Shown here in pieces: positions 41,816-47,871 of a stretch of 48,004 nucleotides of DNA (its first letter is position 1; each line of letters opens with the position of its first letter). The notes under the pieces are model-generated. The model was given only the letters and a program-made list of their open reading frames with translations. It was not told the origin of the DNA and did no database searches. The translations under genes were made by a program, and so were the position numbers. Source of the stretch: Bacteroidales bacterium (lineage in GTDB: Bacteria > Bacteroidota > Bacteroidia > Bacteroidales > VadinHA17); the NCBI GenBank assembly GCA_021163295.1, contig JAGGXD010000169.1:1-48004 (forward strand), written 5' to 3'.

Positions 41816-43888
41816 CTATTTTAGAACATCCTGAGCAGAAAGCTTACTGATATTTAGCTTAAATTCAACCGGTAGTGTTAACTCCACAGGAACTGCTTTA
41901 CCATGCTGAACTCCGGGTTTCCAGTCCGGCATTGAACTAATTAACCGCAGAGCCTCCTTATCTAACGGTGGATACAATTTCTTATCCAGCATAATGTTTT
42001 TTACTTTACCACTTTCATCAACGGTAAACCGTACCCAAACAGTCCCGGAAATACCCTCTTCTTTAGCTTTTTCAGGATAGCGCATATTGGTTTTCAGGTA
42101 TTCATGCAGAGCCTGTTTCCCGCCGGGAAAGTGAGGGACATCTTCTACAATAACCAAAGTTTCACCATCATTTTCCTCATCCGGTTTGTCAGGTTTTACA
42201 GGTTCAGCACTATTTTTTTTTGGTGGTTCAAGATTTACCTTATACACACTTCTTTTTAATCTGATCTCCAGATATTCATCATTAGCAACCTCTACAATCT
42301 CAGTCTTAAACCCGATATATGAAACTGTAAAAGAAAATTTTTCATTATCCGCCTGTAAGGAAAACTCACCATTTTTATCGGTTATTGTACCTGTATAAGT
42401 ATTTGAAATAACTATGCTTGCTCCCGGTAAAGGCTCACCGGTTCTATCATCAAGAACTTTCCCTTTTACCCGATATTTTTTATTTGAATTGGTGGATAAA
42501 TAATCCTTTAGTGTAACGAGAATCACACCATCTGTTGCTCTTTCACCATATGCCTTAACAGCACTTTCTCCTTTTAAAACCGTAACTGACTCTATTTTAT
42601 CAGGATCCAGCTGCTTCATTTCCTCATTTGTGATCTCTTTTTCATTAACAATAAATAGTGGCGCTTTATCCTGGTAAATAGAGGATAGCTTTATATTCTC
42701 ATTTAAGTTCAGGTTGTCAGATGTCTCTGTATTACGCTTTAAAACAATATTTAAAAATTCACCCTTTTTAGCTTTTACCGCAAGAGTTTCATAACCAGGA
42801 TGGGAAAAAGATAACACTATATTCTCTTTCTCAACATTCAATAAAAATTCTCCGTTTATATCGGTTACTGTGCCTACAGGAGTACCTTTTATAATAATAT
42901 TGACTCCCGGTAGTGGTTTATTTGTATCCTCTGCTGTTACTTTCCCTTTTATTATATAGCTATCTGTTATACCTTTTTGATCCTTATCGGCAGGTTCTCC
43001 GGAAAAAGGATTGGAAAATGCCAGGCTAAGCAATACTAATACGGGAAGAAGAAATAACACCCGCCATTTCCTTCTGTTTGGTGATTTTCTTTTTTTCATC
43101 ATAGCCATTCTTTTTTTACCAAGTGAATAATTAAAAGTATGTATTAAACCCATGAAGGTTCTTCCCAGGGAATACCTGAACAATAGGTTCTGATAATTCT
43201 GTAAGGGAAACCCCTGCTGTATGACTGCATAATCAGCAAGATATTCATGATTTTCTCTGACAGTTCTACCAACCATCCAGGCAATTGGATTAAACCACTG
43301 AAAAACACATAAAAATTCAATGAAAAGCAGATCCCAACTGTGTTTTTGTTTTAAATGCTCTGCTTCATGAATTAAGATTTCTTTAAAATATTCTTGTTCA
43401 AGAATTCCCGAAGGAATAAATATATGTCCGAAAAATGAGAAAGGTTCAGAGATCCGGTTGCTTACATTTACAGATATTTCCCGCAAAATCCTTGTTTCAC
43501 TATTGTGGATTGATTTGGCAATCATTATAGCCTGGTAAATCAATCGTATGGATAATAATAAAACCCCTGTCAGGTATACACCCCATATAAAATGGTAAAT
43601 TGTAAATCCAGCCGTTTGTTCACCGGTTATCTTAAGCGGCTCCATAACCAGGGCTGCCTCAAAATTACGATATCCACTGTTTATAACCTGAACGGTAGAA
43701 GCAGGCTTTATATCCATTAAAAATGAAAGACTAATAAAAGGAAGAATCAGGGAAGTAATACCGGCAGCCAGAAGAAAAAATCTGTGAAATTTGAAGAAAG
43801 TTTCTTTGCGTAATAACATCCAATACACTCCAAATAACAGAACTAATGCTAATACCGATTGAAACTGATATTGCCAGAATTCATTCAT
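41816..43888 (-). CDS. BlaR1/M56-like metalloprotease fused to carboxypeptidase-regulatory, plug-like and TonB domains
   Basis: A 690-residue protein with an unusual layout. Residues 1-295 form an M56 antirepressor-protease unit: membrane helices at about 8-27, 36-58, 96-118 and 276-292, and the zinc motif HEAEH at 174-178 with a downstream ENHEYLAD (Glu ligand region). A carboxypeptidase-regulatory beta domain follows at 312-385. Next is a plug-like segment at 406-460, with DKIESVTVLKG and YGERATDGVILVTLK as in SusC-type receptors. A second regulatory domain lies at 472-545, and a TonB C-terminal domain at about 595-678 (RYPEKAKEEGISGTVWVRFTVDESGKV). In BlaR1 the protease inactivates the BlaI repressor on signal. 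Here the added domains suggest signalling from, or contact with, an outer-membrane receptor (inference). It starts 2 bases after blaI. Confidence 0.9.
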   Translation of the reverse strand: MNEFWQYQFQSVLALVLLFGVYWMLLRKETFFKFHRFFLLAAGITSLILPFISLSFLMDIKPASTVQVINSGYRNFEAALVMEPLKITGEQTAGFTIYHFIWGVYLTGVLLLSIRLIYQAIMIAKSIHNSETRILREISVNVSNRISEPFSFFGHIFIPSGILEQEYFKEILIHEAEHLKQKHSWDLLFIEFLCVFQWFNPIAWMVGRTVRENHEYLADYAVIQQGFPLQNYQNLLFRYSLGRTFMGLIHTFNYSLGKKRMAMMKKRKSPNRRKWRVLFLLPVLVLLSLAFSNPFSGEPADKDQKGITDSYIIKGKVTAEDTNKPLPGVNIIIKGTPVGTVTDINGEFLLNVEKENIVLSFSHPGYETLAVKAKKGEFLNIVLKRNTETSDNLNLNENIKLSSIYQDKAPLFIVNEKEITNEEMKQLDPDKIESVTVLKGESAVKAYGERATDGVILVTLKDYLSTNSNKKYRVKGKVLDDRTGEPLPGASIVISNTYTGTITDKNGEFSLQADNEKFSFTVSYIGFKTEIVEVANDEYLEIRLKRSVYKVNLEPPKKNSAEPVKPDKPDEENDGETLVIVEDVPHFPGGKQALHEYLKTNMRYPEKAKEEGISGTVWVRFTVDESGKVKNIMLDKKLYPPLDKEALRLISSMPDWKPGVQHGKAVPVELTLPVEFKLNISKLSAQDVLK

Positions 43889-43890
43889 AA

Positions 43891-44265
43891 CTATCCTTTT
43901 TCATTATCCAATTCCTTCTGTATCTCTTTTATCATCTCCTCCATTTCCTGTAAACTCAAATCATTTTCCTGTGCAAAAAAGGAAGCCATCTTTGGGAATG
44001 AATTATTGAAATATTTCTTCATAAAATCCCCAAAGTAAACCTGTGTATATTCCTTTTTAGAAATAAGAGGAAAGTATTCGTAAGTAGTTCCATAGGATTT
44101 ATGATCAACAAAACCCTTTTTTTCCAATACGCGTACAACTGTAGAAACAGTGTTGTATGCAGGTTTTGGATCAGGTAGTCGTTCAAGTATATCCCGTACA
44201 ACTGCCTTTTCCAGTTCCCACAGGACATGCATGACCTGCTCTTCTGCTTTTGTTAATGTTTTCAT
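43891..44265 (-). CDS. blaI: BlaI/MecI-family repressor
   Basis: The protein is 124 residues from the ATG at 44265, beginning MKTLTKAEEQVMHVLWELEKAVVRDI. It is a winged-helix repressor: recognition region PKPAYNTVSTVVRVLEKKGFVDHK, then the cleavage/dimer region. The frame is open five codons further to a TTG, but BlaI proteins typically begin M-K-x-L-T-K-A-E-E and the -7 element would overlap that extension. Paired with the M56 gene 2 bases behind, it forms the classical repressor/sensor-protease module. The upstream region has three matching dyads, so it almost certainly controls itself. Confidence 0.95.
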   Translation of the reverse strand: MKTLTKAEEQVMHVLWELEKAVVRDILERLPDPKPAYNTVSTVVRVLEKKGFVDHKSYGTTYEYFPLISKKEYTQVYFGDFMKKYFNNSFPKMASFFAQENDLSLQEMEEMIKEIQKELDNEKG

Positions 44266-44269
44266 GTTC

Positions 44270-44277
44270 CAAACATA
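44270..44277 (-). promoter_or_regulatory. blaI promoter -7 element with -33 TTG
   Basis: The minus strand reads TATGTTTG, an exact TAnnTTTG match. A TTG (plus-strand CAA at 44298-44300) lies 20 bases further upstream, the spacing expected for a Bacteroidota -33. The -7 element ends five bases before the ATG, so the message would be leaderless or nearly so. The three dyads overlap the spacer and the -33 region. Confidence 0.72.
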
Positions 44278-44278
44278 C

Positions 44279-44333
44279 AACTATTTTATTAGTTTGCCAA
44301 CTATTTTAATAGTTATTTCACTATAATTATAGT
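44279..44333 (-). promoter_or_regulatory. Triple BlaI operator array, dyads 20 bp apart
   Basis: Three dyads: AACTATTTTATTAGTT at 44279-44294, AACTATTTTAATAGTT at 44299-44314, and the perfect palindrome ACTATAATTATAGT at 44320-44333. Their centres (44286.5, 44306.5, 44326.5) are exactly 20 bp apart, close to two helical turns, so bound dimers would line up on one DNA face. Dyad 1 fills the spacer between the -7 and -33 elements and dyad 2 overlaps the -33 TTG, so occupancy should block transcription of blaI and the M56 gene. Confidence 0.85.
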
Positions 44334-45568: not shown

Positions 45569-45691
45569 TGAAATTATTTTGCAGTAAAAAAAAGAAAAAA
45601 TATTCATAAACACTAAAAACAATGTAACTATTCTGTATCTTAAATTTGAAACGCTCAAAATGGTAAATTTCATTATACTTTGCATTATTAA

Positions 45692-45719
45692 GTCGGCAAT
45701 CTTCAATCGGCAGTCGGCA
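45692..45719 (-). repeat. Period-7 array, inverted copy (4 units)
   Basis: Units GTCGGCA, ATCTTCA, ATCGGCA and GTCGGCA. Their reverse complement reads TGCCGAC/TGCCGAT, the same unit as the array at 45837-45962 but in the opposite orientation. The two arrays flank 117 bases and could pair as a long stem. Confidence 0.85.
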
Positions 45720-45834
45720 ATTTGAAGACAGTGTAATTAATTTTATGAGATTTTCTAATCTGAGTGGTTAAATAGTGAAGTAAATCTTTAGGAAATTTCT
45801 TATTAACAAGATAAATATCCCACTGCAAGAGCAA
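45703..45834 (-). pseudogene. Relic of a four-helix-bundle protein gene (S23/IVP-like family)
   Basis: One minus-strand frame between the two period-7 arrays encodes WDIYLVNKKF, then FPKDLLHYLTTQIRKS, ending at TGA (45703-45705). From memory, the family consensus in Bacteroidota around FPK-[DE]-E-L-Y-G-L-T-S-Q-I-R-R-[AS] aligns without gaps, with about 11 of 16 positions equal. The following conserved SIPSNIAEG stretch is missing and the N-terminal part is replaced by the heptamer array, so it cannot make a normal protein. It is probably a decayed, truncated copy. The alternative is a chance match; a protein search would settle it. Confidence 0.5.
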
Positions 45835-45836
45835 AC

Positions 45837-45962
45837 TGCCGATTGCTGACTGTGGACTGCGGACTGCCGACTGTGGACTGCCGACTGCTGACTGTGGACT
45901 GTGGACTGCTGACTGTGGACTGTGGACTGCGGACTGTGGACTGCCGACTGTGGACTGCCGAC
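45837..45962 (+). repeat. Period-7 tandem array (18 units)
   Basis: Eighteen uninterrupted seven-base units of form TGNNGAC (TGTGGAC, TGCCGAC, TGCTGAC, TGCGGAC, plus TGCCGAT as first unit) cover 126 bases exactly. Variation is confined to positions 3 and 4 of the unit, with one change at position 7. Because 7 x 3 = 21, any frame through it gives a seven-residue peptide repeat, which explains the open frame on the minus strand. No spacers are present, so it is not a CRISPR array. Confidence 0.95.
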
Positions 45963-45969
45963 TTTTTAC

Positions 45970-46050
45970 TACCTTTGCTCACCAAATAAGTAAATATCCA
46001 CCCTCTATCTTTGTGCCATCTGGCTTAAAGATATGTTTAGACTATATTTG
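45970..46050 (+). promoter_or_regulatory. Three -7 elements upstream of the DUF1670 pair
   Basis: Exact TAnnTTTG matches occur at 45970-45977 (TACCTTTG), 46006-46013 (TATCTTTG) and 46043-46050 (TATATTTG), spaced 36 and 37 bases apart. All point toward the DUF1670 genes and lie 154-234 bases before the ATG. The downstream one is the best placed to start a transcript carrying the stem-loop leader. Clear -33 elements are not seen. Confidence 0.5.
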
Positions 46051-46091
46051 TTCTTTGACGTATTGTTTTATAATGTTTGTATCGATTCTTT

Positions 46092-46148
46092 CTCGATGGA
46101 GATGCTTGGAGGGAGGGCGTAGCCCGACCGGAAAGCATCTTCATCGAG
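46092..46148 (+). ncRNA. Strong structured leader (16-bp stem-loop) before DUF1670
   Basis: The arms CTCGATGGAGATGCTT (46092-46107) and AAGCATCTTCATCGAG (46133-46148) pair over all 16 positions, with one G-U. The 25-base loop contains an inner hairpin GGGC/GCCC (46115-46118, 46122-46125) around GTA. Competing pairings exist: ATCGA (46081-46085) with TCGAT (46093-46097), and GAGATG (46099-46104) with CATCTC (46171-46176). It is far more GC-rich than its surroundings and lies 55 bases before the ATG. It may be a cis-regulatory RNA, a processed small RNA, or the end of a mobile element. I do not recognise it as a known riboswitch. Confidence 0.6.
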
Positions 46149-46203
46149 AGCCGCCTTGAACGGAGGTAGTCATCTCTATTTTATTCACTTTATTTTTATT
46201 ACT

Positions 46204-47004
46204 ATGATTAATAATTCATCACTTCAAAAATGGTCTCGTCTTGAAACAAAGAGTTTAGACAATCAATTTATTAACGATATTATTAATGGCATGAACTGTT
46301 CTTCTTTTGAGGCAAAAGCCGTATTGGATACTGTTCATAAGGTTTATGGTGATTTCTTTGATTGCTCTCAGGAACTGGCTCCGGGTAAAGCTAAATTCAT
46401 TGTTATCTCTGTTGAAGATTCGCCAGCTAAAAAGTTAACAGAGGCAACAAAGGTTAGTGTTACTTTGACCATTAATGATGATAAGGAAGACCTGCCCATA
46501 AAAGAGAACAATGGTATTGTTGCCCTTAGGCAACACCGGTTAAGCCGCATCTGCAATGAAGCCTTTATGCAAGGCGGACTGCTTACAGTTGAAGATATTG
46601 CCAACCGCATATTCTGCTGTGGAGAGAGAACCATCGTGCGTGATTTAAAAGATTTAAGGGAGCAAAACATCTTTGCCCCACTCCGTTCCACGATTAAGGA
46701 TATGGGACGGACACTCTCTCATCGCTCCTTAATTGTGAAGGAATGGATTAAAGGAAGTGAATATACAGAGATTGCCCGCAAAACTAATCATAGTATAAAA
46801 GCGGTAAACAACTATGTGCATAAGTTTAAGCAAGTTGTGGCACTTATGAAAGACGGGTATGATGTACATACCATTGCTTTTCTGACCAAAATATCAAAAC
46901 GGTTGGCAGAAGAGTATATTGACATCAAAGCCCACTCAATTATAGTTCCTTCTCGCAAACACGAACTTGAGACATTATTAAAAAAAAGAGTGTTAAACCA
47001 ATAG
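46204..47004 (+). CDS. DUF1670 protein, first of a tandem pair
   Basis: A 266-residue protein of the DUF1670 family (no known function). The N-terminal half holds WSRLETKSLDNQFINDII and the core GKAKFIVISVEDSPAKKL. The C-terminal half is a chain of helix-turn-helix-like segments: about 126-157 (LLTVEDIANRIFCCGERTIVRD), 185-210 (YTEIARKTNHSIKAVNNYVH) and 219-245 (YDVHTIAFLTKISKRLAEEY). The last two resemble sigma-factor or resolvase-type HTH units. Binding to DNA is therefore likely (inference). The start is ATG 46204; the frame extends to a TTG at 46156, but those residues lie in the leader and do not match the family. It is followed after 11 bases by a paralogue. Confidence 0.8.
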   Translation: MINNSSLQKWSRLETKSLDNQFINDIINGMNCSSFEAKAVLDTVHKVYGDFFDCSQELAPGKAKFIVISVEDSPAKKLTEATKVSVTLTINDDKEDLPIKENNGIVALRQHRLSRICNEAFMQGGLLTVEDIANRIFCCGERTIVRDLKDLREQNIFAPLRSTIKDMGRTLSHRSLIVKEWIKGSEYTEIARKTNHSIKAVNNYVHKFKQVVALMKDGYDVHTIAFLTKISKRLAEEYIDIKAHSIIVPSRKHELETLLKKRVLNQ

Positions 47005-47015
47005 AAAAATATGAT

Positions 47016-47783
47016 ATGTTACCAATTTCATCGGCATTTAATCACTATAGTTCAGCTCATAAACGGTTTTTGAAACCAGCTATTGAGAATTTCTTTAAAA
47101 CGGAGTTTACTAAATCTTTTGGACCAAATGTTCGTAGCTTTATTGCTGATGAATTAATCAAAATCTTTCAAGAGAACAATAGGGATATTAACTCTATAAA
47201 GCCGGGACAAGTGCTTTGGAATGCCATTCATAAAAACACCAGGGCCGACTCGCATAACATGAAACTTGTTCCGGTCATTCTTACTTTAGTTAGTGATGAT
47301 GATATTTCTAAACTTAAAAATGGATTAAAAATACAAGAACACCGACAAAATGTAGTTGCCAGAATACTGAAAGAAGCTTATTCTCAAGACGCTCTGCTTT
47401 CGATGAGAGATGTAGGTCTTCTGCTTGCCATAAACTATTCTTCCGCATCAATTACTAGAAAAGCGCATGAGGAAAAGCATAATGTAAATCTGCCACACCC
47501 TGGCAATTTGCAGGATATGGGGTCATGTCTGACACACAAATATCAAATAATTTACAAGTGTGTAGTCGAAAAAAAAGACCCTGTAATGGTTGCAAAAGAG
47601 ACTAATCATACCATAATGGCTGTCGATCATTATCTCAAAGATTTTAATCGTGTAAAAACCTTATATCTTGATGATAAAGATGAAAATTACATACATCTTG
47701 TCACAAAGCTATCTTTAAACTTGATTGCTCAATATGTTAACATTATAAACCAATATGTCAAAGAACTTAATACAGCTATTTAA
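47016..47783 (+). CDS. DUF1670 protein, second of a tandem pair
   Basis: A 255-residue DUF1670 paralogue of the preceding gene. The C-terminal parts align directly: LQDMGSCLTHKYQII against IKDMGRTLSHRSLIV, AKETNHTIMAVDHYLKDFNRV against ARKTNHSIKAVNNYVHKFKQV, and HLVTKLSLNLIAQYVNI against FLTKISKRLAEEYIDI. The N-terminal parts differ: this one has YSSAHKRFLKPAIENFFKTEF and the family motif KPGQVLWNAIHKNTRADS. Two divergent family members side by side suggest a heteromeric DNA-binding complex. They are on the plus strand with no other gene between, and codon use does not obviously differ from neighbours. Confidence 0.8.
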   Translation: MLPISSAFNHYSSAHKRFLKPAIENFFKTEFTKSFGPNVRSFIADELIKIFQENNRDINSIKPGQVLWNAIHKNTRADSHNMKLVPVILTLVSDDDISKLKNGLKIQEHRQNVVARILKEAYSQDALLSMRDVGLLLAINYSSASITRKAHEEKHNVNLPHPGNLQDMGSCLTHKYQIIYKCVVEKKDPVMVAKETNHTIMAVDHYLKDFNRVKTLYLDDKDENYIHLVTKLSLNLIAQYVNIINQYVKELNTAI

Positions 47784-47871
47784 GCTATTAATTATTTATT
47801 TTAAATATATGCATTTTTATTTGTTTAGCCATATTACTTTATCTAGGCGGGTACAGCCTGTAACATTCCCT

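What the first reader, a model, noticed from the sequence alone, without database searches (positions are those of the whole stretch)
46043..47783. Tandem DUF1670 paralogues behind a strong structured leader: candidate undescribed system
Two divergent DUF1670 proteins, each with several HTH-like segments in the C-terminal half, follow each other by 11 bases and are preceded by a GC-rich 57-nt stem-loop. The family has no assigned function. The paired, non-identical arrangement suggests a heteromeric DNA- or RNA-binding machine. The leader could be its target, its regulator, or an element end. The position beside decayed repeats marks an accessory, possibly mobile, segment.
Basis: partly seen in the sequence, partly recalled or inferred. 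Interest (0 to 1): 0.7.

Follow-up and report, generated by a model that had tools for sequence, protein, structure and literature searches.

The report
Hairpin-targeting transposon with twin DUF1670 genes
The two neighbouring 'unknown' genes are the whole cargo of a small jumping DNA element that lands in hairpins between genes (or, in cousins, exactly at the ends of secreted-protein genes), and since neither gene resembles any known DNA-moving enzyme, the element may move by chemistry nobody has described.

Summary
In detail: two divergent DUF1670 (PF07900) genes, 11 bp apart, behind a strong hairpin. The pair is not a stand-alone regulator. It is the only plausible coding content of a discrete 1.84-kb mobile element, window 46006-47843.

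Evidence: conservation has sharp edges. The distribution is patchy (about 2-3% of sampled genomes). Some genomes hold several copies, many decayed. Flanking DNA differs from copy to copy. For one relative, same-genus genomes carry the empty site. The family crosses phyla (Bacteroidota/Desulfobacterota). A and B always occur as A-B and evolve together under purifying selection.

Each end carries a short palindrome. Insertion leaves no clear target duplication, and one tip is 3 nt longer than the other.

Targets are unusual. The window's subfamily inserts in the loop of GC-rich, terminator-like hairpins. A second subfamily inserts at the stop codon of type IX secretion (T9SS) sorting-domain genes.

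The leader hairpin is real (12 of 16 pairs covary), but only in the window's subfamily.

AlphaFold models show HTH domains and no recognisable catalytic domain. My best explanation is that A and B together are the element's recombinase/transposase. The main rival is that a host enzyme, such as a Y1 transposase, moves it. ISfinder could not be checked.

The parts
46006..47843 (+). Whole mobile element, 1838 bp, GC 35.6% (window 36.2%)
   Evidence: Sharp edges of DNA conservation against L014-L017; edges fixed by comparison with other copies and coordinates checked
45996..46005 (.). Left flank: 5' arm of the target hairpin (ATCCACCCTC)
   Evidence: Rejoined flanks fold as a hairpin, pairing TATCCACC with GGCGGGTA; this is one of the weaker sites of the ten
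46006..46033 (.). Left tip: imperfect palindrome TATCTTTGTGCCATCTGGCTTAAAGATA with core GCCATCTGGC at 46015-46024
   Evidence: Folds at -10.7 kcal/mol; 9 nt between tip and core as in other copies
46050..46077 (.). Left arm of a 28-bp subterminal inverted repeat
   Evidence: 93% complementary to 47739-47766; also in L016 and L017 but not in all members
46090..46150 (.). Leader hairpin: apex GAGGGCGTAGCCCGAC on a long variable stem
   Evidence: z -4.6; 12 of 16 pairs with changes on both sides, covariation 0.833 against 0.187 shuffled; apex essentially restricted to elements
46204..47004 (+). Gene A, DUF1670 paralogue 1, 266 aa
   Evidence: PF07900 E=8.8e-46 from this start; AlphaFold pLDDT 82.5; dN/dS 0.05-0.12
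47016..47783 (+). Gene B, DUF1670 paralogue 2, 255 aa
   Evidence: PF07900 E=3.2e-48; AlphaFold pLDDT 79.3; dN/dS 0.05-0.18
47739..47766 (.). Right arm of the 28-bp subterminal inverted repeat, inside the 3' end of gene B
47828..47843 (.). Right tip: palindrome GCCATATTAC (degenerate here; GCCATATGGC in relatives) followed by the 6-nt tip TTTATC
   Evidence: Same order and spacing in other copies
47844..47853 (.). Right flank: 3' arm of the target hairpin (TAGGCGGGTA)

Best explanation
The finding is a compact insertion-sequence-like transposon whose only two proteins, the DUF1670 paralogues A and B, act together as its recombinase/transposase. Proposed mechanism: A and B bind the short palindromes at the two ends through their helix-turn-helix domains and pair the ends. 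They cut and rejoin the DNA with a 3-nt offset and no target duplication. In the window's subfamily the new site is the loop of a GC-rich hairpin; in the sister subfamily it is the 3' end of a T9SS sorting-domain gene. The covarying leader hairpin of the window's subfamily is most likely an extra A/B binding site or a guard against transcription from outside. Shown: mobility of the family, ends, targets, constant A-B pairing, purifying selection. Inferred: that A and B do the catalysis, that they form a heteromer, the strand chemistry, and the role of the hairpin.
For: Sharp edges. Empty sites in same-genus genomes for a second-subfamily copy, L059. Several copies in one genome with different flanks. 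Patchy and often decayed distribution. Cross-phylum relative in genuine Desulfobacula DNA. No other plausible gene in the element. A and B always paired, congruent trees, r=0.94, dN/dS 0.05-0.18. Hairpin targets: 61 of 200,000 shuffles reach the observed flank complementarity. T9SS stop-codon targets. HTH-rich models.
Against: No catalytic domain is recognisable in A or B. The window's own copy is single in its genome, and no empty site was found for it. Every element host tested also carries Y1 transposases, so a helper is possible. No activity has been observed.
Confidence: 0.7

Rival explanations
1. The element is mobile, but A and B are only DNA-binding accessory or regulatory proteins. 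Cutting and joining is done by a host or co-resident enzyme, most likely a Y1 (HUH) transposase of the IS200/IS605 or RAYT type acting on the palindromic ends.
For: A and B look like HTH proteins with no catalytic domain. Palindromic ends and absence of target duplication resemble IS200/IS605 (PMC6006769). Y1_Tnp genes occur in 17 of 17 element hosts against 83 of 118 background genomes. L016 lies directly beside a Y1 transposase gene.
Against: The Y1 enrichment is confounded by lineage and genome size. The element keeps A and B paired and intact over deep divergence. No Y1 gene lies inside any element. Most hosts have no Y1 gene next to the element in the stretches read.
Confidence: 0.2
2. 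A and B are ordinary chromosomal regulators (or another nucleic-acid-binding machine) and the leader hairpin is their operator; there is no mobile element.
For: HTH domains and a conserved covarying hairpin upstream.
Against: Empty sites, multiple copies with constant edges and changing flanks, patchy distribution, cross-phylum relative, and one subfamily without any hairpin.
Confidence: 0.03
3. The leader hairpin is a guide or scaffold RNA, as in IS110 bridge RNAs, that helps A/B choose the target.
For: Non-coding structured region near one end, element-specific apex and covarying stem. Some IS110 elements also target palindromes (PMC1525189).
Against: No match between hairpin sequence and the target was seen by eye (not tested formally). 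The hairpin is absent in the T9SS-targeting subfamily, and in L014 it is flipped relative to the genes, which fits a DNA site better than a stranded RNA.
Confidence: 0.05

Closest known systems
IS200/IS605 family (HUH/Y1 single-strand transposition)
   Same: Short palindromes near both ends, asymmetric tips, no target duplication (general features described in PMC6006769)
   Different: No Y1/HUH gene in the element; two DUF1670 proteins instead; longer unit; target is a hairpin loop or a gene's 3' end rather than a tetranucleotide
REP-targeting insertion sequences (IS1397, ISKpn1, IS621, ISPpu9, ISPpu10; PMC1525189)
   Same: Insertion into extragenic palindromes
   Different: Those belong to IS3, IS110, IS4, IS5 or IS256 families with recognised transposases; the targets here are varied terminator-like hairpins, not one repeat family
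IS110/IS1111 with bridge RNA (PMC11208160 listed; details from general knowledge)
   Same: Structured non-coding stretch near one end; site-specific insertion
   Different: No DEDD transposase; hairpin present in only one subfamily and flipped in L014
Tn7-like insertion at a gene's 3' end (attTn7 at glmS; from general knowledge)
   Same: Apparently harmless insertion at the end of a coding sequence (second subfamily)
   Different: No Tns proteins; target is a large repeated gene class (T9SS sorting domains), and the junction lies at the stop codon itself
PF07900 DUF1670
   Same: Both proteins are clear members of this sequence family
   Different: The Pfam entry assigns no function; here the family appears as the coding content of a transposon

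Membership tests
PF07900 (DUF1670) | Profile match above the gathering score | tested here: met
   156 and 164 bits against a cut-off of 25
Insertion sequence (general kind) | Compact unit with defined ends that carries only genes for its own movement | tested here: met
   Ends, gene content, copies and empty sites; that A and B serve movement is inferred
Insertion sequence (general kind) | Movement observed | not testable with these tools
   Only comparative evidence is available
IS200/IS605 | Y1/HUH transposase encoded in the element | tested here: not met
   A and B have no Y1_Tnp match at E<=0.5; no other plausible ORF in the element
IS200/IS605 | Subterminal palindromes and no target duplication | tested here: met
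IS200/IS605 | Single-stranded circular intermediate | not testable with these tools
   Needs a strand-specific assay
IS110/IS1111 | DEDD transposase | tested here: not met
   No DEDD or Transposase_20 profile match in A or B at E<=0.5
DDE insertion sequences (IS3, IS4, IS5, IS256) | DDE transposase with target duplication on insertion | tested here: not met
   No DDE profile match and no clear duplication beyond a TT ambiguity
Serine or tyrosine site-specific recombinase | Catalytic resolvase or integrase domain | tested here: inconclusive
   Only weak hits to the resolvase HTH (HTH_7); a shared Tyr (A204/B206) is invariant in both families but sits in an HTH helix; no fold match to a catalytic core, and the N-terminal part was barely tested

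The most novel reading that the evidence does not exclude
The DUF1670 A-B pair is a new class of DNA recombinase/transposase, unrelated to DDE, HUH, DEDD, serine and tyrosine enzymes. It works as a heteromer on palindromic ends with a 3-nt offset. One branch recognises hairpins and another the stop-codon sequence of T9SS sorting-domain genes.
Probability: 0.5. Interest if true: 0.88.

Novelty: new variant of a known kind. Interest (0 to 1): 0.76.

Why it matters
It gives an unassigned Pfam family a concrete, testable role: the coding content, and probably the mover, of a transposon family that crosses phyla. If A and B catalyse the reaction, they would be a recombinase class without a recognised catalytic fold. 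The two target habits, hairpin loops and stop codons of T9SS cargo genes, are natural examples of apparently harmless integration at repeated sites. They could inform targeted DNA insertion in Bacteroidota.

Tried and rejected
Phage or plasmid origin: no match in plasmids, phages or viral contigs. Rfam: nothing above chance. Defence, phage and NCBI families: only weak hits. Solved structures and folds: no relative; the best structural matches are common HTH folds (TrpR Z 6.7, DnaA domain IV 6.0, Z-alpha 5.9 for A; DeoR 6.2 and sigma region 4 5.8 for B). The N-terminal part of each protein (about 100 residues) was barely tested. Guide pairing between the left-tip arm and the flank (as in IS608): tempting in L070 and L016, but in G219 the pairing probably lies inside the element, so I dropped it. 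Empty site for L064: its two flank genes are not neighbours in relatives, so no test was possible. MITE-like short copies: no opposite end was found near the partial copies checked, which look like decayed ends. Y1 helper test: inconclusive. L113 shows no matching right stem and is kept in the hairpin test as an exception. Archaeal members (Methanosarcina acetivorans rings in the control) could not be fetched.

Full report
1. Observation. The two ORFs are there. A (46204-47004, 266 aa from the conserved MINNSS start) and B (47016-47783, 255 aa) both match PF07900, at E=1e-45 and 3e-48, and lie 11 bp apart. The leader hairpin (about 46090-46150) folds far better than shuffles. The region also holds a 28-bp inverted repeat at 46050-46077 / 47739-47766, whose right arm lies inside gene B.

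2. A discrete unit. Relatives were found in four genome contigs: a Desulfobacula MAG, a Dysgonamonadaceae MAG and two Bacteroidota MAGs. DNA identity of 73-81% begins at 46001-46005 and ends at 47758-47844, with unrelated sequence outside. The common ends read TATCTTTGT-GCCATATGGC... on the left and ...GCCATATGGC-TTTATC on the right, giving an element of 1838 bp at 46006-47843. A and B are its only plausible genes.

3. Mobility. DUF1670 occurs in 6 of 295 genomes of the order, 12 of 395 of the phylum and 7 of 297 of the phylum of the Desulfobacula genome, often as fragments, with stop codons, or cut at contig ends. In one genus, genome G468 holds a full copy plus several element ends at contig ends. 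The right edge (GCCATATGGCGCTAAC|) recurs with different flanks in other genomes of that genus. In G344 an element of the second subfamily (L059) interrupts a gene that looks like a galactose-1-phosphate uridylyltransferase/ATP adenylyltransferase (named by eye). Six same-genus genomes have the gene uninterrupted, which is a clean empty-site test. In L070 the element sits inside a tandem repeat of about 50 bp whose neighbouring unit shows the empty site CCCCTGACGGGG. The Desulfobacula copy is 81% identical in DNA, and its right flank is 83-87% identical to other genomes of its genus, so the contig is unlikely to be misbinned and the family crosses phyla. The window's own copy is single in its genome, and no empty site was found for it.

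4. Geometry. In the window's subfamily the left tip is 9 nt and the right tip 6 nt outside the palindrome. In the second subfamily the tips are about 4 and 7 nt, fixed by the empty site up to a short T/A ambiguity. In both cases the difference is 3 nt. No clear target duplication is seen. This fits a 3-nt offset in cutting, or transfer of one fixed strand; which of the two is inference.

5. Targets. In the window's subfamily the flanks are inverted repeats: insertion is just after the 5' stem of a GC-rich hairpin. Examples are ATTCTGCCCC|GCA-GGGGCAGAAT in L064, CCGCACC|TGT-GGTGCGG in L014, and a 22-bp stem in L112. Over ten sites, true flank pairs are more complementary than swapped ones (mean 7.6 against 4.2; 61 of 200,000 shuffles reach the observed sum). 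One site (L113) shows no stem, and L112 contributes much of the signal; without both, 256 of 40,320 permutations reach the observed sum. The window's own site is weaker, but its rejoined flanks still fold. In the second subfamily the flank at one end is AARATGRTTYTNNTNAAA followed by TAA or TAG and the palindrome. In 13 of 15 such junctions an open frame ends there with a T9SS-type C-terminal domain (...PNPFNP...SGVYFYRL...KKMVLIK*). All six of these that were tested exceed the TIGR04183 cut-off. Of 38 matches to a relaxed form of the motif in all loci held, 32 are at element tips; overlapping loci count more than once. The insertion in L059 has the same motif on the antisense strand of the split gene, and its empty site indicates that the stop-like TAA comes from the element.

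6. Proteins. A and B are ancient paralogues (profile probability 99.9, 22% identity). They have congruent histories over 16 elements (r=0.94), and the order A-B is invariant. dN/dS is 0.05-0.18. AlphaFold models (pLDDT 82.5 and 79.3) show an N-terminal part of helices and a beta hairpin, a long helix, a winged HTH and two more HTH units. No match reached E<=0.001 in PDB or viral models. VIA-align matches are ordinary HTH folds at Z<7, which is weak. No catalytic domain was recognised.

7. Leader hairpin. A gap-free alignment of ten elements shows a symmetric hairpin with apex GAGGGCGTAGCCCGAC. Twelve of 16 pairs have compensatory changes, and the covariation score is 0.833 against 0.187 for shuffles and at most 0.18 for slid controls. 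The apex occurs about once per element and hardly elsewhere in nine host genomes. The hairpin is absent from the second subfamily and reversed relative to the genes in L014. It is therefore a real, selected feature of one subfamily. The flip makes a DNA site somewhat more likely than a stranded RNA; this is one case only.

8. Mechanism and rivals. The most economical reading is that A+B is the recombinase, because it is the only thing the element carries and it is kept intact and paired across wide divergence. The chief rival is a host helper: Y1 transposases occur in 17 of 17 element hosts against 83 of 118 background genomes, an enrichment confounded by lineage. I put the recombinase reading at 0.7.

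9. Known context. IS200/IS605 elements also have subterminal hairpins but need an HUH enzyme (PMC6006769). Some IS110, IS3, IS4, IS5 and IS256 elements target REP palindromes (PMC1525189). None matches the protein content here. No paper in the open-access library names DUF1670 or PF07900. ISfinder and subscription literature could not be checked, which is why I rate novelty as a new variant of a known kind rather than categorically new.

Noticed in passing
window 45690-45965: Array of degenerate 7-bp units (GACTGCC / GACTGTG and similar) just left of the element, with inverted copies at 45690-45719; outside the element.
   Followed up: no
window 41816-44280: BlaI/MecI-like regulator next to a BlaR1-like M56 peptidase fused to TonB-type domains, both on the minus strand (named by eye from the translations).
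   Followed up: no
L070, left flank (L006 about 2380-2430 and 560-620): A dispersed repeat of about 50 bp (CCCCTGACGGGGTTCTGAAATGATCGGCTGACGATTTATGCTACCAATATTTC) in tandem, with one hairpin filled by the element.
   Followed up: partly
L014 5072-5134: The leader hairpin is inverted relative to the genes in the Desulfobacula copy, the only such case seen.
   Followed up: partly
gene B residues 45-123: Weak match (E=7.6e-4) of the N-terminal half of B to phrog_12777, a viral family of unknown function.
   Followed up: no
control genome Methanosarcina acetivorans: PF07900 is also found in this archaeon, so the family may span domains of life.
   Followed up: no
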